A stretch of 64,000 bases of DNA from Cryptosporangium minutisporangium. Lineage in GTDB: Bacteria > Actinomycetota > Actinomycetes > Mycobacteriales > Cryptosporangiaceae. Where the stretch lies: assembly GCF_039536245.1 (NCBI RefSeq), contig NZ_BAAAYN010000023.1:130875-194874 (forward strand), given 5' to 3'. Positions 14,215 to 61,844 of the stretch are shown one piece after another. Position 1 is the first letter of the stretch; each line of letters opens with the position of its first letter. Both the position numbers and the translations under genes were made by a program. The notes beneath the pieces are model-generated. The model saw nothing but the letters and a program-made list of their open reading frames with translations. It did no database searches and was not told the DNA's origin.

Positions 14215-15969
14215 TCACTGCGGCCCCGCGGCGCCCGAGCGCGGTACGGCGACGTCGAACAGGAGCCCGCTCACGCCCTCCCCGCATCCCGGGCGTTTAC
14301 GTCGGCCCACCCAGAGCCGGTGCCCGCCGTCCGTCCAGCGGGCGTACTGCCAGGCCCGCGTGACCTCGACGCCGCTCCGCGGAACCTCCTCTTCGGGCAC
14401 CGCGACGTCAGTGAGCTCGCTCAGCACCCGCCCCCAGGGCGGTGGTCCCGGACTGCCGTCCGCCCTCGGCACGGTCCCGAGCACCAGCTGCCTCGCTCCG
14501 GCCCCGGCCGGAGCGGCGAGCAAGGGGTACCAGTGGTCGGGAAGGTCGGTTCGGAGCCGGTAGCTCAAGTCGGGCACGGCACCGGTCGCCGGCTGCGGCG
14601 CCGTCTGCGTGGCGGCTTCCTCGCGGCGACGGCGTTCCTGATAGGCCTCGGCGCGGTCAGAGGGTGTCCCGGCGGGCCCGCCTGCGATCCGTTCGACGGC
14701 CCAAGCCAGGTTCGCGGCCTCGTCGCGGAACACCACGACGTGCTCCAGCGGCGACGACTCTGCGCTGGGTCCGAGCGCGGGCGGGACGAACAGCACGCTC
14801 TGCCGTGTCGACCCGGGCACGGTGAGTTCGAACAGCCGGAACCGGCCGTCCGCCTCGTCGCGCTCCGCGCTGGAGCGAACCAGCGTCTGCCGCCCGAAGC
14901 AGTCGGTCACGACGAGCCAGTTGATCCGGCAGAGCGAGCCGACATCGACCTCGACCGGAACGAGATAGAAGTCGTTGCCGTGCGTGATGGCGAACTCGAC
15001 GAGCATGAGCGTCGCCAGATCGTCGGTGGCCGCGGTGACTTCCCCGAAGTCCACTTCGGCGTCTTCGAACTCCCAGAAACGCGCCGACGGCATGCCGCGG
15101 TAGGAGAGCGGCACCGGCGGTCCGGCGTGGCTGAGGGTGGCGAGCTCGCCACCCGGGTCCAGGCTCGATGCCCCCAGCTCCGCGTCCGGATCCAGGTCGA
15201 ACGCGTACCAGTCCAGGTTCCCCTCGGCGTACTCGCCGGCGGTGAGAACCTTCTCGCGATCCGACAGGCGGGCGGAGACCGCGAACGAGTACTCCAGCCG
15301 CTCGGGACGCCACGCCGGCTCGCCCTCCGGCATCCGGCCGATCAGCACCTCGTACCAGGCCAGGAATCGCGCGGCCGCCGCGGTGACCGCCGGGACGTCC
15401 GGCCCGGCGATCGAGGGCTCGTTCGGCAGCCAGGCCGCTGCGCCTCCCACTGCGCCTCCGGCTGCGTCGAAGGCCTGCCGGAGCTCGTCGTGGAGCCTCA
15501 CGCCGTCGGGCGCCCGACGGCCGAGGACCGATCCGAACGGCGAGTCGGCGGAGTCGAGCGAGCGATAGCGCTCCCGATAGGCGTTCCGGTACGCGCTCTG
15601 CCCGGCGTCCGCGAGGAAGCGCAGGAACTGGAGACCGGCGAGCGGTGCGAGCCGGACCCGGCGGTGTTCGGCGTCGACCGGTAACCGCTCGGCCTCCACC
15701 AGCTCCTCCAGCGGCACGGTCGCGCTGTCGTAGAGCACGCCGGGGGATCCGTCCGGCCTCGACGGAAGGAACCGGGTCAGACGTCCGGCCTCGCCGCGTA
15801 CCTGCACCCAGACCGGTGTCGCCGCACCGGTCTCGCCGTGCAGCGCACCGATCGCGTACTGGCGGGCGACCAGCCAGAGCGGATCGGCGATGCGGGCCTG
15901 GAGCGCCCCGGTCAACTCGCGGTCGACCACGTGTGGCTCGAGTCGTGTCCAGCCGGTCACCGACGCCAT
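14215..15969 (-). CDS. Conserved hypothetical protein, last gene of the giant cluster (584 aa)
   Basis: I do not recognise a characterised function. The start is ATG 15969, 22 bases after the 1754-aa gene, with a GGAGGG ribosome site. The N-terminus contains LQARIADPLWLVARQYAIGA followed by HGE, a pattern I associate with a widespread uncharacterised family (DPLW-x-x-x-RQ). The middle has acidic, aromatic-rich stretches such as DWYAFDLDPDAELGA and FWEFEDAEVDFGEV, a VEVDVGSLCRINWLVV segment, and a charged helix AEAYQERRRREEAA near 440. No signal peptide, membrane helix or catalytic motif is visible. It converges on the LacI gene with a 12-base gap. It probably works together with the four genes upstream. 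Confidence 0.8.
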   Translation of the reverse strand: MASVTGWTRLEPHVVDRELTGALQARIADPLWLVARQYAIGALHGETGAATPVWVQVRGEAGRLTRFLPSRPDGSPGVLYDSATVPLEELVEAERLPVDAEHRRVRLAPLAGLQFLRFLADAGQSAYRNAYRERYRSLDSADSPFGSVLGRRAPDGVRLHDELRQAFDAAGGAVGGAAAWLPNEPSIAGPDVPAVTAAAARFLAWYEVLIGRMPEGEPAWRPERLEYSFAVSARLSDREKVLTAGEYAEGNLDWYAFDLDPDAELGASSLDPGGELATLSHAGPPVPLSYRGMPSARFWEFEDAEVDFGEVTAATDDLATLMLVEFAITHGNDFYLVPVEVDVGSLCRINWLVVTDCFGRQTLVRSSAERDEADGRFRLFELTVPGSTRQSVLFVPPALGPSAESSPLEHVVVFRDEAANLAWAVERIAGGPAGTPSDRAEAYQERRRREEAATQTAPQPATGAVPDLSYRLRTDLPDHWYPLLAAPAGAGARQLVLGTVPRADGSPGPPPWGRVLSELTDVAVPEEEVPRSGVEVTRAWQYARWTDGGHRLWVGRRKRPGCGEGVSGLLFDVAVPRSGAAGPQ

Positions 15970-15991
15970 CGTGGGTCCCTCCCCCGCCCGC

Positions 15992-18900
15992 TCACCCGAA
16001 CCGCTCCCGGAAATCGAGCTCGATGAACGTCCCGATCGGACCGCTGTCCAGCTCTCGACCGTCGGCGAGCGTCACGATCACTCCCAGCGGGACCTCCTCG
16101 CGCACGTCGATCCAGACGCCGGGAGGAAACGCCGGTGGCTGGTGACCGGCGAGCGGGAGGTTGACGACCAGCTCGGTGTCCGAACTCTGCACCGCGAACC
16201 GCTGCCCGCCGAAGCTGAACCTGACCGACTGTGCAGTGGCGAGACGCTGTCCGGTGATCGTGACCGACACCGTCTGGTCGGTTCGCGTGCGCCGGATCTG
16301 TGTCGGACGGACACCGGAGATCACGGGACGGTGCACCACGGTGAACAGCCCGGGCGTCTCGGTGGCACCGCCGATCGTCTCCACGCGAACCCCACGCGGC
16401 CCGGGGACCGCATCCGGCTCGACCGTGACCCGCAGCCGGACCCTGGTCGGCCCGGCGACGCCGAGGACCTCGGTGCGGACGCCGCCCCCGGTGACCGCCA
16501 GGCCGATCTCGGACAGGAAGCGCTCGCCGGTGACCACCACGTCGAACGGGCCTTCGCCCTGCTCGGCCTGGGCGCGATCCAGGGCGGTCACCCGCGGTAC
16601 CCCGGCCACCTGCGGGACGCCGAAGCCTTCCGGGAGGGAGCCCAGCGCGTCGGCGGGAACCGTGATCGTGTCGCCGTCGGCGTTGTTGGCCAGCCACACC
16701 GTGGGCAGGAACTGCTCGGCCGAGCCCACGGTGCCGGGCTCGACGAGGCGCAGCCGGACCAGGTCCACGGTCTCGTCGACGACCGCCTCCAGCGTGGCGA
16801 GGTCCCAGGTCTCGGCACGCGGGTCGGGTGGAACCGCGAGAAGGACGGACTGTGGCGGCTCGGAGGCGGGCGTGTCGAAGTGGAACGTGATCGCGGTCGT
16901 CTCCCGAGGGCTGGGCACCACCTCGACCCAGTCGTCGACGAGGAGGCCGCAGAGCGGGCCGGTCAGCGCGGGCAGGGCCTCCGCACAGTGGACCAGCGAG
17001 AGCCGCCCGCCCGGTGGCCGCAACGCTCCGTCGAGAGCACGACCCGCCCAACGGCCGCCCGGTACCGGCAACTGTCCGACTCGGAGCGCCAGCGGCGGAC
17101 GGGTCCCCAGGGCCTCGCCGTAGGCCGCGACCTCGTCGAAGACCGCGAGCGCCGGGCGGACCCGGCCCACCCGGGCGAACCAGGTGAGCGGATGGTCGGC
17201 CGGGTCCTCGCCGGTCGCATCGGTGGTGGCGAACGCCTCGGCGAGCCGATGGGGCTCGGCGAGGACGAAGCGGGGAAGGACGCGGAACTCGGCTCCGAGG
17301 AGCGCGTGCAACCGACCGAGGTGCGCGGCTGCCCGCTCGTCGGACGTGGGTGGTGCGGTGCGGCCGGGCGCGGTGAGGGCGTCGGCCAGTTCCGTCGCGA
17401 TGCGGGCCCGGCGCGACATCTCGGCGGCGACCAGGCCGGCCTGCCTGCCGAGGGCCGCCGCTGCCTGCGGGCCGCCCGGGCCGTCCGGGCCGTCCGGGCC
17501 ATCCGGGCCGTCCGGGCCGTCCGGGCCGTCCAGGCGCGGAACGGCGTCCGGGTCGTCGAACCCGGCGGCGTCCAGCAGCGTGGACCGGACGGCCTCGGCG
17601 TCGCTGACCGTTCCGTCGCCGTTCAGGTTCGCCGCCAGGACCGCGCGGATCTCGTCGAGGACGCCGACGACGAACTCGGCTCGATCGGCCAGGTCCTCCG
17701 GGTCCGTGCCGGACTCGACGCGTTCGCCAGACGGTGCGAGGTCCCGGTCGTCGAGCGCCCTGGCGGACGCGATCAGCACGCCGGCGGTACGAGCGACCTC
17801 CAGCGCCTCGGCGATGCTGAGCTCGTCCGCACCGGATCCCTCGGGGCCGACGATCAGCTCGACGACCGCGCCGGGTGGCGCGCCCCGCCCGACCAGCCAG
17901 CGCAACCGCTCCTCGAGCTCTGCCGGGCGCCCGGCGACGTGCACGAAGTCGAGCGGGGACAACTGCAGTTCGTCCAGGCCCACCCGGCGCTCGGTGGACT
18001 GCCCGTCGCTGCCGACTGTCCGGGCCCGGCAGGTGATCCGCGCCGGATCCCCGAGCAGCGCACCCGCCCAGGCGTTGAGCTGCGGCTCCGCGTGAGCACG
18101 AACCTGTCGGGCGCCGGTCGGCCAGTGCGGGAAGGTCGGGGGCGCGCCGCCGAACAGCAGGACGACGCGGTGGGTGATGCCGACGCCGGTGCGCGGTGTG
18201 CGGGAGAACTCGGGCTCCGGGGCCGCCTCGTCACCGGTTGCCGCCGCCTGCAGCGCGGCCGCGGACCTGGTGGGATTGCCCTGTACGGCCTGGTAGACGC
18301 TCTCCGCGACCAGGAGGTCGCTGGTCGCGTCCAGGACGTCGGCCAGCTCCGCGAGTACTGCGAGGATCTTCTCGGCATCCGGCCCGCCGGACGGCGGCAG
18401 GTCACCGGTACCGAACGGGATCCCGGCACCGGTGTGCAGCTCCACCAGCTTCAACCCGTCGACGACGATCCCGGCGGCGAGCGGCGGGTCGGCCGCGACG
18501 GTGACCGCCGTCGGGGCGAGCCGCCGGAACGGGTCGATCCAGCGGTCCAGCCGGGCGTCGTGCAGCGCCCGTTCGAAGCGGTAACCCAGCAACGTTCCCA
18601 GTGTCTGTCCCTGCCGCGAGCCCTCGAGCAAGCCGTGGGCGAGCCGTACCCGCGCCGACGAGAGATCGAAGGTGAACGCGTCACCGGGGTGGCTCAGGTG
18701 ACCGTTGCGGAGCACGGCGGCGGCAGCGGCCTGCGGGATCGACGGCGCGTGCACGTAGCCGTGGTTGTCGACCGCCTCGCTGACGTCGCCCTCCGCCACC
18801 TCCTGCGGCACCGTCACCGGGCGACGCGTGGGCGCCGGCGAAAGCCCGGTGAGCACTCCCCACCCGCCGACCAGCACACCGCGGGAGCGTTCGGGCGACG

Positions 18901-21256
18901 AAGCCCGCAGCGTGGCGAGCCGTTTGGTCGCGAACGACGTGATCCAGGCGTCTAGCCGGTGAGCGGAGAGATCGAGGGTCTCGCGCAGCAACCGGTCGAG
19001 GGTGGCCGGCGCGCACGACTCGAGGTGCACGAGGCCGTCGCGGACCTCGGCCAGTGCCTGCGACGGCGTGGCCGAGGGTCGCCGCGGCGCGTCCAGCGCC
19101 GCGAGTGAGCGCAGGTCGTCTGCCGGGGTGGCGACGTGCTGCTGCTGGAGCCAGGTGCCCAGCGGAGTCGCGCCGGTGACCGCGGGAACGGCGGTCGCGA
19201 GTCGCTCCCGCGGCAGCGGGCCCCCACCGGCCAGACCGACCAGCTCGGTCTCGTCGGTGGCGTCCGGCGCGAGCAGGCCGTGTTCGATCAGCAGCGCGTC
19301 ACCGGCCGCCAGGTACTGCCGGAGGAGCGCGTGCCGGAGCAACAGGAACAGCAGCGAGTTGGTGTCCGGATCGAGCGCGCGCGCAGCGAGCGCGATCGGG
19401 TCGGTGCCCCGCAATTCGGCGAACCAGACCGGGGCCGACCCGTTCCCCGGCTGCACCACGGGTGGTGCGAGCGCCCACGACCGGTCGGGTGGGAGGAAGA
19501 ACGCGCCGGCGATCCGTGGCTGCCAGTCGGGCTTGCCCACTCCGGCGAGCGCCTCGGTGATCAGTGCGCGCTGGCGCGCCAGCAGGTCGAGGATCTCGGC
19601 GCGGGGCATGCCCATGAACGACAGGGCGTTGCGGACCCACTCGGTACCGAAGACGGCCCGGCATGTGTAGTTCGCCGACACCGGCTCCTGCTGGAGCATG
19701 CGGAGGAACTCGTCGCTGCTCGTTCCCTCCGGGCGGACCCGTGGGGTGGTCGCCGCGGCCGCGCGCCACAGCTCGCGCACGCGTCGGAGGAAGCCGGTGA
19801 CGGCGGCGTCGATCGGGGCGCCGTCGTCCGGGACGAACCGGTCCAGGCTGGTCACCGGCAGCACGCCGTACGGCTGACGGCCGATCCGGACGGTCGGAAG
19901 CGGACCGCCGGCCCGCACCCAGTCCGTGAAGTGACGACGTCCGTGTGCGATCGCCGTATCGCTCAGCGTCGGTGCCATCAGCTGGCGGAGGTAGTATCCC
20001 CAAGTGGCCGGCCACAGTGCGGTGTTCATCGCGAGGGCGTCGGTTTCCTGCCGCCCGTCCGCACCGGCGACGTGGGCGAAGACGCCGCTGTCCAGCCCGA
20101 GTGCCACCGCGAGCCGATCACCGTCGGAGCCGTCGCCGCTCGCGCACAACGGTGCGCCGCGCTCGGCGGAGAACGTGCTCTCGGCCGACGGCTTCGCCGA
20201 CCATCCCGAACCGCCCTCGACCGTATTGTTCGTCGGGGTCCCGCGCGGAACCAACGCCAACCCGTCGGTGTAGTGGTGACCGTCGAGCACCTCCGCCAGC
20301 GCGGTGGCGCCGATGTCCGGCCCTTCCCCGGTGCGCACTCCGAGGACCAGCAGCCGATCGAGCCCGCCCGCCGCGTCCGGGTCGAGCGGTACGCGCACCG
20401 CCATACCCGCCGCGACCGCCTCGTCGATCTCGACCAGCCAGCGGATCCCCTCGTCGACGGCGGGACCACCCGGCTGGTCCGCGTTCGGCGACGGCCCGGT
20501 CTGCAGTGGAGTGCGGATCGGGGCGCCCGCGGCCACCAGCACCCGCTCGCCGCCCCGGTATCCGAACACGACCCAGCGGTCCGGCAACAGACGCGCCTCG
20601 TCAGCTCGGTTCCAGGTATGCGTGCGAGTTCCGGCGCCGCGCGCACCGGGGGCGGACTGCCGAGCGATCCAGGCCGCTCGCCGCGGTCCGTACCGCTCGG
20701 CGAGCTGACGCCAGGCAGCGCGGTCGGCGGGGGTTCCGCCCTCGGCTCCGCGCTGGGCCCAATAGTTGGCTCCCCACTCGGCTTCGTCGGACGTCAGCTC
20801 GGCTTCGAACGCGTACTGCTGAACCTCATCGGTGAAGACGCGCAGCACGAGCTCGCTACCGTCGGGACCGTCGCTGAGGCACACCTCGAGCCGCACCGGG
20901 AACAGCGCGACCGGCCAGCCCCCCGGGGCGTCCCCGCTGAGGAGCACCGCGATCGCCGCCCGGATCCGGTCGAGCTGGAGGCCCGTCCGCGGCTCCCACT
21001 CGACCCTGCCCTGACCGGCTTGGTCGGAGATGTCGGCCAGCGCGCGATCCCCGGCCCGGAGGACACCCGGATCGGCGGGAACGCGGCGCAGCGCCCCGGC
21101 GAGCGCGCCGAGATCCACGCGCCACTGCTCGGTGCGCACCGCCCACTCCAGGGCTCGCAACCGCGTCAGGTTGTCCGGGAACTGCCCGGCAGCCGCCGTC
21201 GCGGCGAGATCGGCCTGCACGCCCGCCCACGCGAGTAGTTCGTCGACCCCGATCAC
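15992..21256 (-). CDS. Giant protein of unknown function with Gly-Pro-Asp repeat and IPT/TIG-like C-terminus (1754 aa)
   Basis: The start is GTG 21256, whose GTGA overlaps the stop of the preceding gene; the frame is open upstream to 22900, but that part is antisense-frame shadow of the neighbour. No known enzyme motif was found. Blocks that look conserved include WGANYWAQRG near 180, RIGRQPYGVLPVTSLDRF near 440, and GFGVPQVAGVPRV near 1545. Residues 1243-1260 are six consecutive Asp-Gly-Pro units, a collagen-like hinge. The final roughly 200 residues resemble two IPT/TIG beta-sandwich repeats (VTGERFLSEIGLAVTGGG; VTITGQRLATAQSVRFSFGG). There is no signal peptide or transmembrane helix. Size, beta-rich tail and hinge suggest a structural or scaffold component of a large assembly (inference). 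Confidence 0.82.
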   Translation of the reverse strand: MIGVDELLAWAGVQADLAATAAAGQFPDNLTRLRALEWAVRTEQWRVDLGALAGALRRVPADPGVLRAGDRALADISDQAGQGRVEWEPRTGLQLDRIRAAIAVLLSGDAPGGWPVALFPVRLEVCLSDGPDGSELVLRVFTDEVQQYAFEAELTSDEAEWGANYWAQRGAEGGTPADRAAWRQLAERYGPRRAAWIARQSAPGARGAGTRTHTWNRADEARLLPDRWVVFGYRGGERVLVAAGAPIRTPLQTGPSPNADQPGGPAVDEGIRWLVEIDEAVAAGMAVRVPLDPDAAGGLDRLLVLGVRTGEGPDIGATALAEVLDGHHYTDGLALVPRGTPTNNTVEGGSGWSAKPSAESTFSAERGAPLCASGDGSDGDRLAVALGLDSGVFAHVAGADGRQETDALAMNTALWPATWGYYLRQLMAPTLSDTAIAHGRRHFTDWVRAGGPLPTVRIGRQPYGVLPVTSLDRFVPDDGAPIDAAVTGFLRRVRELWRAAAATTPRVRPEGTSSDEFLRMLQQEPVSANYTCRAVFGTEWVRNALSFMGMPRAEILDLLARQRALITEALAGVGKPDWQPRIAGAFFLPPDRSWALAPPVVQPGNGSAPVWFAELRGTDPIALAARALDPDTNSLLFLLLRHALLRQYLAAGDALLIEHGLLAPDATDETELVGLAGGGPLPRERLATAVPAVTGATPLGTWLQQQHVATPADDLRSLAALDAPRRPSATPSQALAEVRDGLVHLESCAPATLDRLLRETLDLSAHRLDAWITSFATKRLATLRASSPERSRGVLVGGWGVLTGLSPAPTRRPVTVPQEVAEGDVSEAVDNHGYVHAPSIPQAAAAAVLRNGHLSHPGDAFTFDLSSARVRLAHGLLEGSRQGQTLGTLLGYRFERALHDARLDRWIDPFRRLAPTAVTVAADPPLAAGIVVDGLKLVELHTGAGIPFGTGDLPPSGGPDAEKILAVLAELADVLDATSDLLVAESVYQAVQGNPTRSAAALQAAATGDEAAPEPEFSRTPRTGVGITHRVVLLFGGAPPTFPHWPTGARQVRAHAEPQLNAWAGALLGDPARITCRARTVGSDGQSTERRVGLDELQLSPLDFVHVAGRPAELEERLRWLVGRGAPPGAVVELIVGPEGSGADELSIAEALEVARTAGVLIASARALDDRDLAPSGERVESGTDPEDLADRAEFVVGVLDEIRAVLAANLNGDGTVSDAEAVRSTLLDAAGFDDPDAVPRLDGPDGPDGPDGPDGPDGPGGPQAAAALGRQAGLVAAEMSRRARIATELADALTAPGRTAPPTSDERAAAHLGRLHALLGAEFRVLPRFVLAEPHRLAEAFATTDATGEDPADHPLTWFARVGRVRPALAVFDEVAAYGEALGTRPPLALRVGQLPVPGGRWAGRALDGALRPPGGRLSLVHCAEALPALTGPLCGLLVDDWVEVVPSPRETTAITFHFDTPASEPPQSVLLAVPPDPRAETWDLATLEAVVDETVDLVRLRLVEPGTVGSAEQFLPTVWLANNADGDTITVPADALGSLPEGFGVPQVAGVPRVTALDRAQAEQGEGPFDVVVTGERFLSEIGLAVTGGGVRTEVLGVAGPTRVRLRVTVEPDAVPGPRGVRVETIGGATETPGLFTVVHRPVISGVRPTQIRRTRTDQTVSVTITGQRLATAQSVRFSFGGQRFAVQSSDTELVVNLPLAGHQPPAFPPGVWIDVREEVPLGVIVTLADGRELDSGPIGTFIELDFRERFG
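17477..17530 (-). repeat. Six 9-bp tandem repeats encoding Asp-Gly-Pro
   Basis: Six adjacent copies of the 9-bp unit CGGGCCGTC (plus strand; one copy has A for G) encode six Asp-Gly-Pro triplets, followed by a Gly-Gly-Pro variant. It lies in frame in the 1754-aa gene, at about residues 1243-1260. Copy number is likely to vary between strains through slippage. Confidence 0.9.
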
Positions 21257-23967: not shown

Positions 23968-26900
23968 GGCGTCACCTCGTGCGCGGGTGTCAGGCGCAGC
24001 CCGCGAGCGAGGCCCGGCTGCTCGATCCGCAGCCGCCGCAGAAGCCCGGCCGCCTGGCCGTACCCGACGCCGGAGTCGAACTCCGCGGTGAACGGCGTGG
24101 CCGGGACACGCTCGCCGGTGACGGCGACGACCCACGCCGACTCCTGCAGGCTGACGTCCAGCGGTCTCCCACCGAGGCGGCGCAGCTCCGTGCGGCCCGC
24201 CGCCCCGCCGGCCGCGAGTCCGGTCGCGCGTTCGTCCGTGAGGTCGCGCGTGCTCCGGGAGGCCACGACGAGGTCGTCGCTGTCGGGCGAAGCACGGTCG
24301 TAGACGCGGTCCTCGTAGCCCAGGTCGATCGTGAGGGCCCCGGAACCGGTCGGCGGCAGGCCGTACCGGGCGGGCTCTACTCGTTTGCCCACCGGTAGCT
24401 GCTGGAACGACGGGGCGGTGAGCGGATCGGAGAGATCCTGGTACTGGCCGAGCGCGACCGGCTCGCGGACGGTCGCGAGCTTCGGACTCTCACTCCCGAC
24501 TCGGACAGCGCCGATCGCGAAGAACCGCTCCTCCCCCGCGAGCTGGGCGCTGCCGTAGCGGGTGATCTCCAGCTCCAGCGGTACGACGCGCTGCTGTACC
24601 GCGATCGTGCCCAACGGATGGAGCAGCAGCGGTTCGTCGGTGTCCGGGTCGTCGGTGTCCGGGTCGCCGGCGCGGAGACTCACCATCGTGGTGCCGTCCG
24701 GCGGGAGCTGGCCGCGCCAGTTCGTCCGGTCGCCGAGTGCCTTCCGCAGCCGATCCCCGACGTCCACGACCTCCGGCGGAACCGGCGGCTCGGGTAGGCC
24801 GAACGTGTGGTCGACCTGGATCGTGTGGGAGCCGAAGAAGTCGAACGTCGCTGCGCCGACGATCCGCGTCGGCGCCGGTCCGCTGAGCGTGCCCTCCAGC
24901 CGGATCGCGAACAGGGGCGAGCCGCCCCACTTCAACGCCACTCCGGCGTGCACGTCGACGAGGAACGCGAACGGCACGAACTGCAGCAGCGCGTCGAAGC
25001 CGAAGTTGGCCTCGATGCTGAACGGGCCGACGCCCACGAACAGATCCAGGCGGGCGCCCATCTGCGCAGTGTTCGGCGTGAGGGCCAGGTAGGTCTCCAG
25101 CCGGAGCCGGGGATTGTCACCGCTGGCCAGGGCGATCGTCATCCGCCGCAGGCGTGGGAAGCCGGCGGGCGGGGCGAAGCGGGGGTTGAAGCCGCCCACG
25201 GCGATGATCAACTCGGGCCGGGCACCGAAGTTGACCCGGATCGCCATCTCGCCGGCGACGGTGAACGCCGCGATCCGGGAGTCGCGGAGCACGGCGTCGA
25301 TGGCCAGCTCCCGAGCGGCGAAATCGAGCGTCCCGAGCACGTCGATCTTGAGGTCGACGACCGGCGACTCCGGTTTCGGCAGAGCCATCGTCAACCTGCC
25401 CAGCAGGACGACGCGTACCGGGTTCGGCAGCTCCACCATCACGCCGAGCACGGCCGTGATCAGCGGTGGCGAGCCCCAGTTCAGCTTCACCATCGGACCC
25501 AGCAGGAACTGGCCCGGTGCGATCGGGAAGAATCGCCCGAGATCGCTGACCACGCGGCGGGCGTTCGCGGCGAGATTCTGGGGGAACAACACCGAGTCGA
25601 GTCCACCGGTGCGCAGCCCGTCGCGGATCGCGTCGATGGCGATGCGGCGGTTCACGCCGAGGAACCCGCCCACGCCGCTCAGCGTGAAGCCGAAGCCGAG
25701 CTGGATCGGCGTGAACTCCGCCGAGATCAACACGAACAGCGAGAACCCGTCGGAACCGTCGGGCATCCGGGTGGCGAGCAGCCCGACGGCCTTCAGCGCG
25801 ATGCCGGCGAACTGCAGTTCCAGGGCTCCGGCGTACTGCCGGTTGACCCGGTCGATGAACAGGTAGCCGCCCCCGGTGACGACGCTGCTGTCGATCGCCA
25901 GTCCGACGCCGATCGGCGGCTGGAACTCGACGGCGAGATCGACCGGCCCGAGGTTGCCGCCGTCCTCCGGGAACGTGAGCACGAGGCGCAGCCCGAGCCG
26001 CTCAGCCGACGCGGAGAACGGTCCCAGCTTGGCCTCGACGTTCAGCGCGACGGTCGCGGCGACCTCCCCGTCGGTCGGCTCGACCGCCAGGTAGACCGAG
26101 GGGATCTTGAGGAACCCCAGGTCGAGCGGGACGTCGATCGTCGTCGACAGGCCCGGCGCGCCGCCGCCACCGCTCGGCGTTCCCGCGCGGAAGTGCAGAC
26201 CGCGGGTGTTGGACCAGCCGAGGGCCAGATCGAACGGAGCGCGGATCCCCTCGGCGGGGAGAATCTTTTGCAGGAAGCCGTCTCCGTCCCCCGCCGCGAT
26301 CACCATCGCGGCGGTCCCGATCTCGAGCGCGAGCCCGTACTCCTGGTGCTCGCTGGTCAGCCCCACGTCGGCACGCAGGCCGATGCGGCCGAGCTCGAGC
26401 CGGGTGCCTTCCGCGCCGCCGATCCGCAGTGCCGGTGCGTTCGGGTCGACACCGACGCGCTCCGCGGTGACCGTAGCCCGGACGTCGGCGTCCTCGACGC
26501 CGTCCGGCAGCGTCACCCCGTTCGGGCCGACGCCGAAGCCCGTCACGGTGCCGGTCACCGAAATCCCGACTCGCCAGGCGCCGCCCTCCCAGGTGAATGC
26601 GACCGTACCGGCCAGCGCGGCGGTGACCGCGGGTCCACCGTCCGACGCCGGGACGAGCGCCAGGGTCAGCTCGAGCGCCGACGCGTCTGCCGGAGCGTCG
26701 GCCGGGAACCGCAGGATGAGGGAGCGGGCGACCAGGCTCGCCGCGGCGGGTGTGGCGCCGTCGCCGGGGTCCAGCGGCGCGCCCACGGTGACGTCGACGC
26801 CGAGCCCGGCCAGCAGCGGTCCGAGCCGTCCGAACAGGTGGGCGGCCAGTTCCCGCGCTGCCGCGTCGTCGGCCATGTCGTGCAGCGGGTACTCGGCCTT

Positions 26901-27488
26901 CAGCAGCCCGGCCGGATCGCGCACCAGGTCGGGGAGCCGGTCCAATCGCAGCCTCGGCCGCGCGACCGGATAGCGCCGGACGAGCCCGGAGGCGTCGTCG
27001 ACGAGGACTTCGGTGCGCTCGTCGAGTGGCACGTCATCCGGCGTCACGGCCAGGGTGAGCAGCCGCGCCACCTGCAAGGCGGTCGGCCGGTACCGGGCGA
27101 GGTAGACGAAGACGACGAGTTCGCCGAGCTCGGCGCCGAGGTGCCCGAGCGCGGCGGCGACCTCGCCGGCCCCGAGGGCACTCACCTGGTCGGCGAGCTC
27201 GGCGAGGCGCTGGAGCCCGGATGCCGCCTCACCCAGGTCGCCGAGCGTAGCCACGACGTCGGACAGGCCGGTCGGTTCGCCGCGCGTGGTCAGCGCCCGG
27301 AGCGCCCCGCCGATCTGCCCGAGTCCGGTGAGCAGCTCCGGGATCGGGTAACCGTCGACCGCATCGAGATCCCAGCCGAGGCTGATCAGCAGCAGCCGTC
27401 GTGCCTCCTCGCTCTCCACCGCGTCGTCGAGCGGTTGAACGAGACGCTCGAGTTCGCGCAGCAGCGCCCCGAGTGCATCGGCGGTCAC
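23964..27488 (-). CDS. DUF6603-type giant beta-rich protein (1174 aa)
   Basis: The start is GTG 27488 (a GTGA overlap with the stop of the metallophosphatase gene). The first roughly 230 residues are helical and Leu/Asp/Glu-rich (LGALLRELERLVQPLDDAV). From about 250 onwards the protein is a long run of alternating hydrophobic beta-strand segments, such as LGFGFTLSGVGGFLGVNRR, FLLGPMVKLNWGSPPLITAV and FVGVGPFSIEANFGFD, the pattern I recall for DUF6603 proteins. No signal peptide precedes it and no catalytic motif is evident. The amphipathic repeat character would fit an elongated beta-rich rod, groove or shell protein; this is inference. The DUF assignment rests on memory of motifs, not a search. 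Confidence 0.78.
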   Translation of the reverse strand: MTADALGALLRELERLVQPLDDAVESEEARRLLLISLGWDLDAVDGYPIPELLTGLGQIGGALRALTTRGEPTGLSDVVATLGDLGEAASGLQRLAELADQVSALGAGEVAAALGHLGAELGELVVFVYLARYRPTALQVARLLTLAVTPDDVPLDERTEVLVDDASGLVRRYPVARPRLRLDRLPDLVRDPAGLLKAEYPLHDMADDAAARELAAHLFGRLGPLLAGLGVDVTVGAPLDPGDGATPAAASLVARSLILRFPADAPADASALELTLALVPASDGGPAVTAALAGTVAFTWEGGAWRVGISVTGTVTGFGVGPNGVTLPDGVEDADVRATVTAERVGVDPNAPALRIGGAEGTRLELGRIGLRADVGLTSEHQEYGLALEIGTAAMVIAAGDGDGFLQKILPAEGIRAPFDLALGWSNTRGLHFRAGTPSGGGGAPGLSTTIDVPLDLGFLKIPSVYLAVEPTDGEVAATVALNVEAKLGPFSASAERLGLRLVLTFPEDGGNLGPVDLAVEFQPPIGVGLAIDSSVVTGGGYLFIDRVNRQYAGALELQFAGIALKAVGLLATRMPDGSDGFSLFVLISAEFTPIQLGFGFTLSGVGGFLGVNRRIAIDAIRDGLRTGGLDSVLFPQNLAANARRVVSDLGRFFPIAPGQFLLGPMVKLNWGSPPLITAVLGVMVELPNPVRVVLLGRLTMALPKPESPVVDLKIDVLGTLDFAARELAIDAVLRDSRIAAFTVAGEMAIRVNFGARPELIIAVGGFNPRFAPPAGFPRLRRMTIALASGDNPRLRLETYLALTPNTAQMGARLDLFVGVGPFSIEANFGFDALLQFVPFAFLVDVHAGVALKWGGSPLFAIRLEGTLSGPAPTRIVGAATFDFFGSHTIQVDHTFGLPEPPVPPEVVDVGDRLRKALGDRTNWRGQLPPDGTTMVSLRAGDPDTDDPDTDEPLLLHPLGTIAVQQRVVPLELEITRYGSAQLAGEERFFAIGAVRVGSESPKLATVREPVALGQYQDLSDPLTAPSFQQLPVGKRVEPARYGLPPTGSGALTIDLGYEDRVYDRASPDSDDLVVASRSTRDLTDERATGLAAGGAAGRTELRRLGGRPLDVSLQESAWVVAVTGERVPATPFTAEFDSGVGYGQAAGLLRRLRIEQPGLARGLRLTPAHEVTP

Positions 27489-29851
27489 GGTGCACCCGCC
27501 GCCGTCGGCCGGGGATAGTTCGCATCGCTGAACGACAGCGAGACCGTGAAGACGCGAAGAGGTTCGATCGGTACCGTGGATTCGCCCTTCCTGCGCCACC
27601 AGAGTGTGTGGACGACTGCCTTGTCCTCGCCGGACCCCCAGGTCAGGCGGACCTCTCCGAAGTTGTTGACGCCGACGGCGCGTCGGCCGAGGAACTTCCC
27701 GATGGCCCGACGGAACTGTTCCGGGTCGGGGTTCCCGGGAACTCCCACGGGAAGAATGGCGGCCCAGTCCAGCGCGGTCGGCAGGTCTCCCGCCGCGACG
27801 AGGTAGTCACGACGGTGGGCCCAGTCGGGCGGCGGGGTGACGTCGATCAGCGGTGGCGTCGTCTCGAGCTCCAGCACCGGCGGCTCGCCCGCGAGTAGCC
27901 ACGGCTGCCAGCGAGTCTTCACCCAGGCGGCGGGGAGAACGCTCGGCAGTCCTGTCCGGACCTGCGGTCGCGCGCGCCAGCCGAGCGTCCGCTTGCTCCC
28001 GGACTCGGGCAGGCCCCCGTACCCGGCTGCGTGGACGACGTACGTCTTGATCTCTTGGTTCTTGCACGCGCTCGCGGTGAGCTGGGCCGCGACGAGATCG
28101 CTCCCGGCCGGGGCCAGTTCGCGGAACGGTCGGTCGCCCCAGTACTGCAGGCGGGTGGTGAACCCGTAGTGCACGTCGCCGCTGAGGAGGACGACGCGCG
28201 CTTTGCGACGCCCGTCGGCACCGGGCCTGCCGCGGGCCGCGAGCCGGGTGATCAGAGCCTCGAACGTGCCCCGGTGCAGCTCCCACGTCTCCCGGTCGCC
28301 GATGAACGCTCCGTAGGGTCCGGTGCCGACCTTCTCCTGGATCAGCTCCGGAAGCGGGTTCCCGACCACCGGCGCCGGAGCGACGACGAACGAGACCTCG
28401 ACCGTCTGCTCCCGCGGTGGGAACTGCAGCGCCATCCGTCCGTCCTCGATCAACGCGGGTGGGTCGGACATGCCTCCCGGGAAGGACCGCCAGGTCCGTG
28501 CGTCGAGCACGATGAGCTCGTAACGCGGCCCGGTGACCCCGCCCGCCTCGACGTCCGGCCCGGTGACGCGGAAGTTCCAGGTCGGCCAGTCGCTCGGGTG
28601 CCGTAACCGGTTGTTCTCGAGGGTCGACTCGAGGATCGGCGTACTGCCGGCCCAGTTGGGGGCGACGGCAAGCAGCCCGGCGCCCCAGCCGCTCTCGAAT
28701 GCTTCCGGGGTGTTGCCCCAGGCCTGGAACAGCGCGAAAGCCAGGAGCCCGTTCTGCACCACCTGCCTGCCCGCCGGTTTGGTCAGCACTCGCCGGGACC
28801 ACGCCTGGTTGAGGAACCAGTCGTCGCTGACGTCGTGATCGTCGAAGATCATGTACGTCGGGACGTTGGCGAGCCCGTGCCGCACGTCGGCCAGCGCCGC
28901 GCGGAAGCGCGTGACAGCAGCTAGTTCCTCCGCGTAGTACTTGCGTGGATCCTTGCCGTCGACGGTCGTCCCGGGCGGGTGCACGCGGTCGACGGCGGGC
29001 AGATCGCCGGCGGCCGGCCACAGGACGGGCGACCACGCGAAAAGGTACATCAGGGCGTACTCGGCGAACGTCAGCAGATGGCTCTTCGCGACCTTGAAAT
29101 CCGACGAGCTCCCGATACCGACGACCGCCGTCATGCCGGCTTGATCGGTGGCGTAGAGGCCGCGATGCCCCGGCTCCAGTTCCGGCGAGTCGGGTGCGAT
29201 ATCGGGTAGCGCCTCGCCCGGCAGCCCCAGCGCCGTTCGCGCGTCGCGAATCAGGTGGAGCAGCACGTCGGGCACGTCGTCGGCGTAGATCTGGTCGCCG
29301 GTGAGGAGCAGGTGGTGGGGGCGTGCGAACGGATCGGTGACGCTGTCGAGCAGCATGGTGTGCAGGGCGGTGAGCGCATCCGCCCCGCCGCCGTGCGACT
29401 TCCGGCAGGACCCGTGCACGATGCGCAGCTGTCCGAGCGAGGACGGCGGGAGCGCGAAACTCGGCAGGGTCTTCGAGAAGCCCGCGTACGCGACCGCGGC
29501 CATCGCGGTGACTCCACCGGTGGAGGACAGGACGTTCGGCGAGGCCAGCCGCTGGTTGTTCCCGAAGTCCAGGTCGTAGAGGTAGATCTTCCCCGGCTCG
29601 AGCACGGCCTGGCTCGACCGGGCGGTGACCGCGACGACGTGCAAGCGTTCGCCCAGCCGCACCGTGGCTCGCTCGCCCCGGAGAAGTGGTACGGCTCCGG
29701 CTCCGTCGGCGAACACTTCCACCGCGACCGAGCGGGCCTCCCGAAGGGCGACCCACACGGTGACGGTCCGCGCGTCGGTGCGGCGCAGGATCGGGCCGGC
29801 CAGGACCAGCGGGAGCTGACCGAGGCGGCTCTGCAGCGACGTGAACGCCAT
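27485..29851 (-). CDS. PhoD-like metallophosphatase, first gene of the giant cluster (788 aa)
   Basis: This is an alkaline-phosphatase-D-like calcineurin-fold metallohydrolase. Metal-ligand motifs are clear: GDQIYADD (about residue 195), IFDDHDVSDDW (about 330) and LSGDVHYGF (about 570). The start is ATG 29851 behind AGGGG; the frame runs 9 codons further without support. At 788 aa it is longer than secreted PhoD (about 520-580 aa) and has an extra C-terminal roughly 120 residues ending in a beta-rich tail (VGVNNFGEVRLTWGSG). Unlike typical PhoD it has no twin-arginine or Sec signal, so it is predicted to be cytoplasmic. Its stop is overlapped by the start of the DUF6603-type gene. It opens the operon, after a 153-bp gap from the citrate synthase gene. 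Confidence 0.85.
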   Translation of the reverse strand: MAFTSLQSRLGQLPLVLAGPILRRTDARTVTVWVALREARSVAVEVFADGAGAVPLLRGERATVRLGERLHVVAVTARSSQAVLEPGKIYLYDLDFGNNQRLASPNVLSSTGGVTAMAAVAYAGFSKTLPSFALPPSSLGQLRIVHGSCRKSHGGGADALTALHTMLLDSVTDPFARPHHLLLTGDQIYADDVPDVLLHLIRDARTALGLPGEALPDIAPDSPELEPGHRGLYATDQAGMTAVVGIGSSSDFKVAKSHLLTFAEYALMYLFAWSPVLWPAAGDLPAVDRVHPPGTTVDGKDPRKYYAEELAAVTRFRAALADVRHGLANVPTYMIFDDHDVSDDWFLNQAWSRRVLTKPAGRQVVQNGLLAFALFQAWGNTPEAFESGWGAGLLAVAPNWAGSTPILESTLENNRLRHPSDWPTWNFRVTGPDVEAGGVTGPRYELIVLDARTWRSFPGGMSDPPALIEDGRMALQFPPREQTVEVSFVVAPAPVVGNPLPELIQEKVGTGPYGAFIGDRETWELHRGTFEALITRLAARGRPGADGRRKARVVLLSGDVHYGFTTRLQYWGDRPFRELAPAGSDLVAAQLTASACKNQEIKTYVVHAAGYGGLPESGSKRTLGWRARPQVRTGLPSVLPAAWVKTRWQPWLLAGEPPVLELETTPPLIDVTPPPDWAHRRDYLVAAGDLPTALDWAAILPVGVPGNPDPEQFRRAIGKFLGRRAVGVNNFGEVRLTWGSGEDKAVVHTLWWRRKGESTVPIEPLRVFTVSLSFSDANYPRPTAAGAP

Positions 29852-59912: not shown

Positions 59913-61844
59913 ATGACCGGAGACCCTTCACTGAGGAGCGTCCCGAAAGGCCGTGCGGTCGCCGCCGCCCTCAGCGTCCTGGTGGCCGGCGTCCTGACGG
60001 CCTGCAGCGGCGACAGCGGTCCCGAACCCACCGTCGACGCCTTCCTCAAGGGCTGGCGACAGACCCAGCTCGACAAGGTCAGCTTCGTGGACCCGGCAGG
60101 CAAGTCCATCCCGGCGGGCGACGTCGAGGAGCAGCTGGGGAAGTTCGCCGGAGATCTTCCCGGAACGCCCACGAAGGTCGAGCGCGCAGGTGACGCGGTG
60201 GTGAAAGGCGATACCGCGGTCAGCGCGGTAAAAGTCACCTGGACCCTGCCGGGCCGCGTGACCTGGTCGTACGACACGTCGGTGCGGCTGCAGAAGCGCG
60301 ATGACGACTGGGACGTCGTCGTGGAGCCCGCTCTCGTCCACAAGGACATGAAGCCCGGAGAGACCCTGGGGCTCCGTCGGCAGGAAGCTCCCCGCAGCAG
60401 CATTCTCGACGGAGCCGGAAACCCGATCGTTCGCCCCCGCCCGGTCGTCACCGTCCTGCTCGATCCCGCGAGGGTCACCGACGCCGCAGCGGCCGCCAAG
60501 CAGCTCACCGCCGCGTTCTCGAAGATCGACACCGAGGTCGACCTGTCGGATCTCCCCGCGCGGCTGGCTGAGACCAAGCCGGGGAACACGGTCGACGTCG
60601 TCGTCCTCCGCCAGGAGGCGTACGACAAGATCGCGTCGCAGATCACCGCGGTCGCCGGCACCAGCGTCGTGAAGTCCATGCGTGCTCTTGCGCCGACCCG
60701 CCAGTTCGCCCGAGCGTTGCTCGGGTCGGTCTCGGACGCCACCAAAGACGACCTGACCAAAAAGCCCGGTCTCTACGCCGTCGGTGACCAGGTCGGGCAC
60801 GGCGGCCTACAGGCAGCGTTCGACGAGCGGCTCCGTGGCACCCCCGGACTGACGGTCGTGGTGCGTCGCGCGGCCGCTGGTGCGGACGCCCCGGCGACCG
60901 AACTGTTCACCACCGAACCGAAGCCCGGCCAGCCGATCCGCACCACCCTTGACCAGCGCGTTCAGACTGCCGCGGACGCGGCGCTGGAGGAAATCTCCCA
61001 ACCGAGCGCTCTGGTCGCGGTGCGAATCAGCGACGGCTCGGTGATCGCGGCCGCCAACGGGCCCGATGGCGGGTCGTTCAACGCCGCGTTCGAGGCCGAG
61101 GTTCCGCCGGGTTCGACGTTCAAGATGGTGTCCGCGCTCGGTCTGCTCGAGCAGGGCGCGGTCAAGGCCGACGAAACCGTGCCCTGCCCCAAGCGCCTCG
61201 CCGCGGGTGGCCGCGAGTTCAAGAACTTCGACGATTTCGAGCTGGGCAACGTGCCGTTCCGGACCGACTTCGCCGAGTCGTGCAACACGGCCTTCGTCGC
61301 ACTGGCACCCCGGCTCGGGCCCGATGGGCTGGCCGACGCAGGCCGGATGCTCGGCTTGGAAGCGGACTACAAGCTCGGTCTGCCCGCCTTCTCCGGCAAG
61401 ACTTCTACCGGCGGCGACGCGGCGGAACGTGCAGCCGCGGCGTTCGGCCAGGGCACGACCGTGGTGAGCCCGCTGTCGATGGCCTCGGCGACCGCCGCGG
61501 TGGCGTCCGGCCGTTGGACGCAGCCGATCCTCGTGACGGAACCGGCGTCGTCGCCGACCGCGGCCAGCGGGCCCCCGTTGAAGCCTGCGGCGCTGCAGCC
61601 CCTGCGCGCGATGATGCGGCAGGTCGTCACCGACGGCACGGCGACCTCCTTGAGCGACGTGCCCGGCGGCCCGGTGTTCGGGAAAACCGGCACCGCGGAG
61701 TTCGACAACAACCCGGAGCATGCGCACGCGTGGTGGATCGGCTGGCAGGGCGACGTCGCGTTCGCGGTGTTCGTCGAGAACGGCGGTCACAGCACCTCGG
61801 TGTCGGTGCCCGTGGCCGAGAAGTTCCTTCGAGGGCTGCGGTAG
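59913..61844 (+). CDS. Class B penicillin-binding lipoprotein with MecA-type N-terminal domain
   Basis: This 643-aa PBP starts at ATG 59913 (GGAAG upstream). A lipobox LTAC places the lipid-anchored Cys at 31. An NTF2-like MecA_N domain follows (about 36-140), then a PBP dimerisation domain and the transpeptidase domain with all three active-site motifs: Ser401-Thr-Phe-Lys404 in PPGSTFKMV, Ser456-Cys-Asn458 and Lys591-Thr-Gly593. It cross-links peptidoglycan outside the membrane. MecA-like N-terminal domains are associated with low beta-lactam affinity in some firmicute enzymes, so a contribution to beta-lactam tolerance is possible but unproven. Confidence 0.92.
   Translation: MTGDPSLRSVPKGRAVAAALSVLVAGVLTACSGDSGPEPTVDAFLKGWRQTQLDKVSFVDPAGKSIPAGDVEEQLGKFAGDLPGTPTKVERAGDAVVKGDTAVSAVKVTWTLPGRVTWSYDTSVRLQKRDDDWDVVVEPALVHKDMKPGETLGLRRQEAPRSSILDGAGNPIVRPRPVVTVLLDPARVTDAAAAAKQLTAAFSKIDTEVDLSDLPARLAETKPGNTVDVVVLRQEAYDKIASQITAVAGTSVVKSMRALAPTRQFARALLGSVSDATKDDLTKKPGLYAVGDQVGHGGLQAAFDERLRGTPGLTVVVRRAAAGADAPATELFTTEPKPGQPIRTTLDQRVQTAADAALEEISQPSALVAVRISDGSVIAAANGPDGGSFNAAFEAEVPPGSTFKMVSALGLLEQGAVKADETVPCPKRLAAGGREFKNFDDFELGNVPFRTDFAESCNTAFVALAPRLGPDGLADAGRMLGLEADYKLGLPAFSGKTSTGGDAAERAAAAFGQGTTVVSPLSMASATAAVASGRWTQPILVTEPASSPTAASGPPLKPAALQPLRAMMRQVVTDGTATSLSDVPGGPVFGKTGTAEFDNNPEHAHAWWIGWQGDVAFAVFVENGGHSTSVSVPVAEKFLRGLR

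What the first reader, a model, noticed from the sequence alone, without database searches (positions are those of the whole stretch)
14215..29851. Five-gene, 15.6-kb cluster of giant proteins of unknown function led by a PhoD-like metallophosphatase
Five leftward genes encode proteins of 788, 1174, 904, 1754 and 584 aa with no gap above 22 bases. One has a recognised enzyme fold (metallophosphatase) and one a DUF6603-like pattern; the other three are unrecognised but have strongly patterned blocks (NHEFARE...RGYPTD, RIGRQPYGVLPVTSLDRF, DPLW...RQ). Together about 5.2 thousand residues are invested in one transcription unit, which implies a complex with a defined role. Working hypothesis: a cytoplasmic assembly made of scaffold and beta-rod proteins with a phosphatase activity. 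Alternatives are a storage or shell particle, or a toxin-type complex.
Basis: partly seen in the sequence, partly recalled or inferred. Interest (0 to 1): 0.85.

Follow-up and report, generated by a model that had tools for sequence, protein, structure and literature searches.

The report
Four-gene core with swappable enzyme
Five neighbouring genes that look like a local oddity are one example of an undescribed gene system, found in many bacteria and in salt-loving archaea, in which four large proteins of unknown function travel together behind one exchangeable enzyme.

Summary
In detail: five leftward genes (788, 1174, 904, 1754, 584 aa; overlaps of 4, 4 and 4 bases, then a 22-base gap) lie at 14215-29851. 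They are one example of a conserved system. A scan of one genome each of 84,980 species found 205 stretches related to gene 4. In the best 80 loci (12 phyla) genes 2-5 were found wherever the contig left room, in one order (62 of 62). Four haloarchaeal plasmids carry the same core. Gene 2 is a DUF6603 protein; genes 3-5 have no Pfam family above cut-off; models of genes 3 and 5 had no significant PDB match. The first gene is not fixed: mostly a PhoD-like metallophosphatase (41 of 80), otherwise an M64 peptidase, phospholipase D, subtilase, trypsin-like, oxidase-like or beta-lactamase-fold protein; 26 are unresolved. The window's genome holds a second copy led by an M64 peptidase. Core proteins almost never show a signal peptide, yet some relatives carry inserted adhesive-type domains. 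Best reading: a self-assembling carrier (genes 2-5) for one exchangeable enzyme, perhaps acting on cell envelopes. Assembly, location and target are inferred. I found no paper on DUF6603 in the library searched.

The parts
27485..29851 (-). Gene A (788 aa), occupant of the exchangeable enzyme position: PhoD-like metallophosphatase with DUF7800-like N-terminal region
   Evidence: Pfam PF09423 27.8 bits (cut-off 27), PF25077 20.5 bits, below cut-off; G185-D191 (GDQIYAD), D337-D338-H339 and G558, D559, H561 invariant in the 26 aligned members, window included; weak profile match to PDB 2yeq, alkaline phosphatase D, E = 0.008
29279..29299 (-). GDQIYAD metal-site motif of gene A (residues 185-191)
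   Evidence: invariant in the 26 aligned members; GDQIYA present in 32 of 32 full-length slot PhoD proteins of the 80 loci
23964..27488 (-). Gene B (1174 aa), core: helix-patterned N-terminal region (about residues 1-230) and DUF6603 region
   Evidence: PF20248 E = 1.3e-131; hydrophobic-moment z 4.1 at 100 degrees for residues 1-230, 4.9 at 170 degrees for residues 455-994
24507..26126 (-). DUF6603 region of gene B (residues 455-994)
21253..23967 (-). Gene C (904 aa), core; full-length relatives 546-1784 aa by my gene bounds (the shortest is a split gene), some with FG-GAP or Laminin-G domains
   Evidence: no Pfam family above cut-off; lengths; model pLDDT 86.2, pTM 0.78; no Foldseek PDB match with E <= 0.001
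21976..22023 (-). NHEFARELRWRGYPTD motif of gene C
   Evidence: N649, E651, E655, W658, P662 invariant in 40 aligned members
15992..21256 (-). Gene D (1754 aa), core
   Evidence: no Pfam family; no PDB sequence relative by profile; related stretches in genome contigs: 205
19835..19888 (-). RIGRQPYGVLPVTSLDRF motif of gene D, one of the two patterns of the genome scan
   Evidence: G459, P462, Y463, G464, L466 invariant in 36 aligned members; pattern
17462..17566 (-). GPD-type collagen-like repeat in gene D (about residues 1231-1265)
   Evidence: sequence; the weak PHROGs hits fall on it
16337..16600 (-). Repeat-like domain in gene D (residues 1553-1640), similar to the choice-of-anchor Z repeat, below cut-off
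   Evidence: NF058597 25.7 bits, cut-off 30
14215..15969 (-). Gene E (584 aa), core
   Evidence: no Pfam family; model pLDDT 79.9, pTM 0.77; no Foldseek PDB match with E <= 0.001; relatives in 75 of 75 loci with room
15859..15885 (-). DPLWLVARQ motif of gene E
   Evidence: D29, R36, Q37 invariant in 51 aligned members; P30 and W32 nearly so

Best explanation
Genes B-E encode a self-contained multi-protein particle or complex that carries one exchangeable enzyme, encoded by the gene in front of B. In the window this is a PhoD-like metallophosphatase. Shown here: the B-C-D-E core has fixed order and membership across bacterial phyla and in haloarchaea; the position before B holds unrelated enzyme folds; A and B often overlap by 4 bases; core proteins almost never show a signal peptide; some C and E relatives carry inserted adhesive-type domains. 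Inferred: that the five proteins bind each other; that the core is a carrier, with the amphipathic DUF6603 protein B as a rod or groove, its N-terminal region as a possible enzyme dock, and C, D and E as frame and target-recognition parts; that it works outside the cell or on another cell; and that the payloads attack cell-envelope polymers (PhoD of B. subtilis is an endolytic teichoicase, passage read in PMC7086022; phospholipases and proteases would fit). Release would need lysis or an unknown exit route.
For: Core: 205 related stretches; in the 80 loci kept C 66 of 66, B 61 of 61, E 75 of 75 where there is room, order kept 62 of 62, 12 phyla. Plasmids as a second collection: C in 13 of 72,556 records, and all 13 also hold B and E; profiles find B, C, D and E in order in all 8 of these plasmid loci that I fetched, 4 of them haloarchaeal; Salinigranum marinum also has a PhoD-like gene in front. 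Genome test: among 12 DUF6603-positive Actinomycetota genomes (window genome included) C was found in 10 and E in 8; among 14 negative ones, chosen near the window's genome, 0 and 0. Position before B in the 80 loci: PhoD 34 plus 7 by abutting contig coordinates, M64 5, PLD 4, subtilase, trypsin-like, galactose/glyoxal-oxidase-like and beta-lactamase-fold 1 each, 26 unresolved. The window genome's second copy is M64-led. At least 7 switches between PhoD and other on the E tree. HExxH in 5 of 7 M64, HxKxxxxD in 4 of 4 PLD. Four-base A/B overlap in 22 of 34. The subtilase and trypsin-like occupants share a C-terminal stretch of about 97 aa, blastp E about 1e-7, with one significant place in each genome: a dock candidate. 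Signal-peptide-like starts: B 0/56, C 1/64, D 1/71, E 0/71, against 75/450 neighbour genes. FG-GAP, LamG, PA14, Kelch, TIG in some C or E relatives. Correlated family distances r 0.79-0.90.
Against: No physical interaction, localisation or activity is shown. Over seven enzyme types the tree count (13 changes) is hardly below shuffled labels (mean 14.6, 30 of 500 at or below), so enzyme type follows the core only loosely; that fits swapping but also a loose association. 26 of 80 loci have no identified enzyme: 17 hold no B for lack of upstream sequence, but 9 hold B and show an unknown or cut-off gene (e.g. L053, L078). The A family scored 7 of 32 signal-like under my heuristic; I attribute this to its conserved hydrophobic LPLVLAGP strand but did not prove it. 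Low cysteine (median 0.17-0.32% against 0.75-0.78% in neighbour genes) does not separate inside from outside, because neighbours with and without signal-like starts were alike. Shared ancestry of linked genes inflates distance correlations. No shared dock was found between the PhoD, M64 and PLD classes. The B N-terminal test (12 of 1000 shuffles) is not corrected for relatedness. 2 of 7 M64 occupants, both Verrucomicrobium, lack the HExxH pattern. Inserted domains were looked for in part of the relatives and found in a minority. No recurrent release or immunity-like neighbour was seen: no outside gene family recurs in more than 5 loci, but that call saw 448 downstream and only 65 upstream genes.
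Confidence: 0.5

Rival explanations
1. An intracellular enzyme-hosting scaffold or compartment: B-E form a cytosolic shell or rod that concentrates or restrains one hydrolase, comparable in logic to encapsulins or microcompartments but unrelated.
For: Signal-peptide-like starts nearly absent in B-E; no gene family recurs in more than 5 loci nearby, downstream above all; low cysteine is neutral.
Against: PA14, F5/8C-like, FG-GAP, LamG, Kelch and TIG domains in some relatives, a PG_binding match in the PhoD occupant L145 and in the L084 fragment and the payload list (PhoD, M64, subtilase, phospholipase, oxidase) are typical of proteins that meet extracellular substrates (recalled knowledge of these families).
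Confidence: 0.25
2. A toxin complex in the manner of Tc toxins: core proteins bind a target cell and the exchangeable enzyme is the toxic part.
For: Core plus variable enzyme; recognition-type domains in some relatives; signal peptides nearly absent.
Against: No Pfam, NCBIfam or PDB sequence relative of Tc or Rhs-type proteins for B-E; enzyme sits in a separate gene in front, not at a C-terminus; no recurrent neighbour that could be an immunity gene (mainly downstream genes).
Confidence: 0.12
3. Cell-surface or envelope-anchored enzyme assembly used for nutrient (phosphate, peptide, lipid) acquisition on the producer's own surface.
For: PhoD is the commonest occupant (41 of 80); PG_binding match in the PhoD occupant L145; lamin-tail domain in haloarchaeal E and a 'BGTF surface domain' label on D as written in the plasmid annotation.
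Against: Signal peptides nearly absent in B-E; Pfam found no domain at all in the Salinigranum D; a phosphate-only role cannot explain protease-, phospholipase- and oxidase-led copies.
Confidence: 0.1
4. A decayed or domesticated phage tail-like or contractile particle.
For: Large proteins in a fixed order; weak PHROGs tail hits for D.
Against: The PHROGs hits cover only the collagen-like GPD repeat of D, residues about 1231-1269; a D scan of viral contigs gave no relative; no Foldseek match of C to viral models with E <= 0.001; the one phage-collection record is an UNVERIFIED faecal scaffold whose fetched part has 76% GC.
Confidence: 0.03

Closest known systems
DUF6603 (Pfam PF20248)
   Same: Gene B is a member (E = 1.3e-131).
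   Different: Pfam calls it a family of unknown function; I know of no description of the four-gene core or of the exchangeable enzyme, and 0 papers in the library hold the name or accession.
PhoD-like phosphatases/phosphodiesterases (PF09423; PDB 2yeq)
   Same: Gene A keeps the metal-site motifs and matches the family just above its cut-off.
   Different: 788 aa, no signal-like start in the window protein by my heuristic; own subfamily: its profile scores 7.5e-227 at gene A and 1.2e-18 at the next place in the genome.
Extracellular contractile injection systems (eCIS)
   Same: Works-like resemblance only: multi-gene unit in bacteria and archaea with variable payloads (PMC8213781, passages read); lack of Sec signals in eCIS is recalled.
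   Different: None of the eCIS core domains named there was found in the five window proteins.
Tc toxin complexes
   Same: Works-like resemblance (recalled): several giant proteins plus an exchangeable toxic enzyme.
   Different: No sequence relation found; enzyme is a separate leading gene.
Encapsulins and bacterial microcompartments
   Same: Works-like resemblance (recalled): protein assembly hosting an exchangeable cargo enzyme.
   Different: No Pfam match to a shell family in the window proteins, in 40 C members or 28 D members.

Membership tests
DUF6603 (PF20248) | Match to the family profile above its cut-off | tested here: met
   440.1 bits, cut-off 27
PhoD-like phosphatase (PF09423) | Profile match above cut-off | tested here: met
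   27.8 bits, cut-off 27: barely met
PhoD-like phosphatase (PF09423) | Metal-binding GD, DDH and GDVH-type motifs (motif roles recalled) | tested here: met
   invariant in the 26 aligned members; in 32 full-length slot PhoD proteins GDQIYA 32, DDH plus E, D or C 32, SGDVH-type 27, GSCR 25
PhoD-like phosphatase (PF09423) | Phosphomonoesterase or phosphodiesterase activity | not testable with these tools
   no assay
Extracellular contractile injection system | Sheath, tube, spike, baseplate and ATPase core domains in the operon (domain list from PMC8213781, passage read) | tested here: not met
   Pfam scan of the five window proteins found none of them
Tc toxin complex | Sequence relation to TcA, TcB or TcC/Rhs proteins | tested here: not met
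   no such Pfam, NCBIfam or PDB sequence match for the window proteins or family profiles; distant fold relation not excluded
Phage tail or capsid proteins | Sequence or fold relation to viral structural proteins | tested here: inconclusive
   PHROGs hits of D only on a low-complexity repeat, one weak hit of A to a family of unknown function, D scan of viral contigs 0 relatives, Foldseek of C against BFVD 0 with E <= 0.001; B, D and E were not searched there
Encapsulin or microcompartment shell | HK97-type or BMC shell fold | tested here: inconclusive
   no Foldseek PDB match with E <= 0.001 for C and E; B and D were not modelled

The most novel reading that the evidence does not exclude
A previously undescribed class of enzyme-carrier particle shared by bacteria and haloarchaea: a fixed four-protein assembly, at least partly of new folds, that takes up whichever hydrolase stands in front of it, recognises a target by inserted binding domains, and delivers the enzyme outside the cell without any known secretion machine.
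Probability: 0.3. Interest if true: 0.95.

Novelty: categorically new. Interest (0 to 1): 0.82.

Why it matters
If right, some two hundred or more sampled genomes carry an unnamed molecular machine with a standard chassis and an exchangeable catalytic module, shared by two domains of life and sometimes carried on plasmids. It would give function to a Pfam DUF, may add protein folds that are not in the PDB, and opens a testable question: how proteins without signal peptides, some carrying adhesive-type domains, are assembled, exported or released, and what they attack. A chassis that accepts unrelated enzymes would also be useful for displaying or carrying enzymes.

Tried and rejected
Phage origin: held unlikely; the phage-collection hit is an UNVERIFIED 40-kb scaffold, and the part fetched has 76% GC and carries the end of B and C-E.

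Rhs/Tc, eCIS: no core domain found. Sequence searches of the PDB with family profiles gave only a weak PhoD relative for A and chance-level or coiled-coil matches for the others. Weak hits of single sequences or models (a GST to E at 0.001; nanobodies and Ig-like domains to C) were not reproduced by profiles or stayed low (C best Z 6.5 over 88 residues; E best Z 3.8 over 69) and were set aside. That no listed family matched C or E does not exclude a known fold.

PG_binding as a separate enzyme class: withdrawn. The full-length example L145 is a PhoD protein with a PG_binding match behind it; the L084, L080 and L087 fragments match its C-terminal half, and these three and four more loci (L083, L092, L112, L115) have a PhoD protein at coordinates abutting the locus. 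Among these, PG_binding itself was seen only in L145 and L084; other matches lie in L103 and L027 (both below cut-off) and in L032. Two further genomes (L075, L114) have a PhoD protein that does not abut the locus and were not counted; 7 of the 16 genomes had none at E <= 1e-20.

Shared dock in PhoD, M64 and PLD payloads: not found. A D tree did not finish; E was used instead. On it the seven-state count is hardly below shuffled labels; only PhoD against other is clearly clustered (7 against 13.5). Flanking genes: none in more than 5 loci, upstream hardly covered. The ricin/reprolysin gene of L110 was not counted because it is not adjacent to B. Variant clusters with a C-like protein rest on weak profile scores (L133, L134: hhalign E about 0.002, probability 14-16%) and one hmmsearch hit (L135: 3e-12). 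Literature: searches returned 0 papers; two searches listed two off-topic papers and one on polymorphic toxins (listings seen only).
Full report
WHAT IS THERE. Five minus-strand genes fill 14215-29851. A (27485-29851, 788 aa), B (23964-27488, 1174 aa), C (21253-23967, 904 aa) and D (15992-21256, 1754 aa): A/B, B/C and C/D overlap by 4 bases; E (14215-15969, 584 aa) follows D after 22 bases. Pfam sees DUF6603 in B (E = 1.3e-131), a borderline PhoD in A (27.8 bits, cut-off 27) and no family above cut-off in C, D or E. NCBIfam gives one sub-threshold repeat in D. PHROGs gives weak hits, mostly to tail proteins, that cover the GPD repeat of D, and a weak hit of A to a family of unknown function.

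IT IS A CONSERVED SYSTEM. A genome scan with a D alignment (two short peptide patterns, so a lower bound) found 205 related stretches in one genome each of 84,980 species; the best 80 were kept as loci. Profiles of A-E were run on all frames of those 80 loci. Where the contig leaves room, C is present in 66 of 66, B in 61 of 61 and E in 75 of 75; all four stand in the order B-C-D-E on one strand in 62 of 62 loci that hold all four. The loci come from 12 phyla: Actinomycetota 41, Pseudomonadota 14, Acidobacteriota 7, Bacteroidota 5, Verrucomicrobiota 4, Myxococcota 2, Chloroflexota 2, and one each of Cyanobacteriota, Bacillota, Planctomycetota, Goldiibacteriota and Nitrospirota. The 80 were the best-scoring ones for D, so the sample is not random.

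INDEPENDENT CHECKS OF CO-OCCURRENCE. In 72,556 plasmid records E matched 14, B 15 and C 13. All 13 C-bearing plasmids also hold B and E. The remaining E record (Streptomyces anthocyanicus) has no B or C match, with IS5 transposases in the same stretch, and the remaining B hits (two Embleya) are weak. I fetched 8 of the 13 loci; profiles find B, C, D and E in order in all 8, with C and D split over two or three genes in Rhizobium and Halobellus. Four of the 8 are haloarchaeal; in Salinigranum marinum a PhoD-like gene stands in front. In 396 Actinomycetota genomes DUF6603 occurs in 12, the window's included. Of these 12, C is found in 10 (one weakly) and E in 8; of 14 DUF6603-negative genomes, chosen from those near the window's genome, in 0 and 0. 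The two DUF6603 genomes without C carry other large genes behind it.

THE FIRST GENE IS EXCHANGEABLE. The PhoD-like A family precedes B in 34 of 80 loci. Seven more loci have it at coordinates that abut the fetched stretch, in open frames of 860-1634 aa (adjacency inferred from contig coordinates). Other occupants, by Pfam: Peptidase_M64 in L043, L049, L107 and L111, plus L044 by similarity; PLD in L047, L093, L118 and L119; subtilase in L076; trypsin-like in L100 (all its matches lie just under their cut-offs); galactose/glyoxal-oxidase-like in L085; beta-lactamase-fold in L090. 26 of 80 are unresolved: 17 hold no B for lack of upstream sequence, 9 hold B with an unknown or cut-off gene before it. 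The window's own genome has a second complete copy about 94 kb further along the same contig, led by an M64 peptidase, and another Actinomycetota genome (L137) is also M64-led. Catalytic motifs are mostly there: HExxH in 5 of 7 M64, HxKxxxxD in 4 of 4 PLD, GTSMA in the subtilase, GDSG in the trypsin-like protein; all 32 full-length PhoD proteins of the 80 loci keep GDQIYA and DDH, 27 the SGDVH-type motif. On an E tree with 60 labelled tips the occupant changes at least 13 times over seven types, close to shuffled labels (mean 14.6; 30 of 500 at or below). PhoD against other changes at least 7 times, fewer than in shuffles (mean 13.5, minimum 9). So PhoD has some phylogenetic memory, but replacement is repeated.

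A POSSIBLE DOCK. The subtilase of L076 (Planctomycetota) and the trypsin-like protein of L100 (Chloroflexota) have unrelated catalytic folds but share a C-terminal stretch of about 97 aa (29% identity, blastp E about 1e-7 in a small set, hhalign probability 91). In the genome of each the stretch has one significant place, the slot enzyme itself. I read this as a candidate docking domain; two examples are few. No such shared part was found between the PhoD, M64 and PLD classes. The N-terminal region of B diverges slightly more between loci with different enzyme types than its DUF6603 part predicts (residual difference 0.018, 12 of 1000 shuffles; not corrected for relatedness).

THE CORE PROTEINS. 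C was modelled at mean pLDDT 86.2 and E at 79.9. Foldseek found no PDB match with E <= 0.001 for either, nor any for C among viral models. The structural second look gave best Z 6.5 over 88 residues (C) and 3.8 over 69 residues (E), levels that common Ig-like arrangements reach. B and D were not modelled. B shows an amphipathic helix signal in residues 1-230 (z 4.1) and an amphipathic strand signal in the DUF6603 region (z 4.9). Of 40 C members scanned, 3 matched FG-GAP families and 1 Laminin_G_3; weaker FG-GAP matches appear in further long C proteins. Of six long E proteins scanned, one has PA14 with an F5/8C-like match, one Kelch repeats and two TIG; a haloarchaeal E has a lamin-tail domain. 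Of 28 D members scanned, one matched DUF3892 and one, weakly, FG-GAP.

WHERE IT ACTS. A simple signal-peptide heuristic fires in 0 of 56 B, 1 of 64 C, 1 of 71 D and 0 of 71 E, against 75 of 450 neighbour genes. It fires in 7 of 32 A, not in the window's A, and I think because of a hydrophobic strand near the start. B-E are poor in cysteine (median 0.17-0.32% against 0.75-0.78% in neighbours), but neighbours with and without signal-like starts do not differ, so this does not tell inside from outside. No other gene family recurs next to the cluster in more than 5 loci; the call saw 448 downstream and 65 upstream genes. As far as seen, the system brings no recognisable secretion or release gene.

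MECHANISM. The pattern is a fixed chassis and a replaceable catalytic part. My best reading is a multi-protein carrier built from B-E that takes up the enzyme made just before it. That the enzyme works outside the producer is suggested by the adhesive-type inserts and by the payload list, since these enzyme families mostly act outside cells (recalled knowledge). PhoD of Bacillus subtilis is an endolytic teichoicase (two passages of PMC7086022), so an envelope target is plausible. Assembly, export and target are inferred, not shown; overall confidence is about one half. Rivals are an intracellular enzyme scaffold, a toxin complex in the manner of Tc, and a surface-bound nutrient-scavenging assembly.

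COMPARISON WITH WHAT IS KNOWN. B belongs to DUF6603, and A to the PhoD family by profile (barely) and motifs. The cluster is not an eCIS: none of the core domains listed in PMC8213781 (passages read) is in the five window proteins. No relation to Tc proteins, phage tails or shells was detected in the searches named. No paper in the library holds DUF6603 or PF20248, and combined-term searches found nothing on such a cluster. Most papers of subscription journals are outside that library and the bioRxiv collection is not held.

Noticed in passing
outside the window: G000 contig C23, about 254791-268494 (L025-L026): Second complete copy of the core in the same genome, led by an M64 peptidase-like protein, divergent from the window copy.
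   Followed up: yes
L133 (G095), L134 (G123), L135 (G386): DUF6603 genes without a standard core, near other large proteins with a C-like block; G095 has a gene with a weak metallo-beta-lactamase match in front. Possibly a second type of the system.
   Followed up: partly
L029 13818-15278 (-) and L146 561-1742 (-): An unnamed Actinomycetota genome and Streptomyces sp. NBC_01724 have a Tle1-like or DUF2235 gene (the same family as far as I recall) and a WD40 gene near the core, without a recognised leading enzyme.
   Followed up: no
MT835531.1 (L142): Phage-collection record marked UNVERIFIED, from faecal samples; the fetched part has 76% GC and carries the end of B and C-E, so it is probably a bacterial fragment.
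   Followed up: partly
window 16528-16610 (-) and 61438-61534 (+): ARAGORN calls a tRNA-Ala inside gene D and a tRNA-Asp inside another open frame; probably false positives.
   Followed up: no
L149 and record NZ_CP134947.1 (Halobellus plasmid): The plasmid has two places each for B and C, suggesting two copies of the system; in the copy fetched, C is split over two genes and D over three.
   Followed up: partly
L141 (Rhizobium lusitanum plasmid): Core with C and D each split over two genes, followed at some distance by a CVNH-domain gene and two GH25 lysozyme genes.
   Followed up: no
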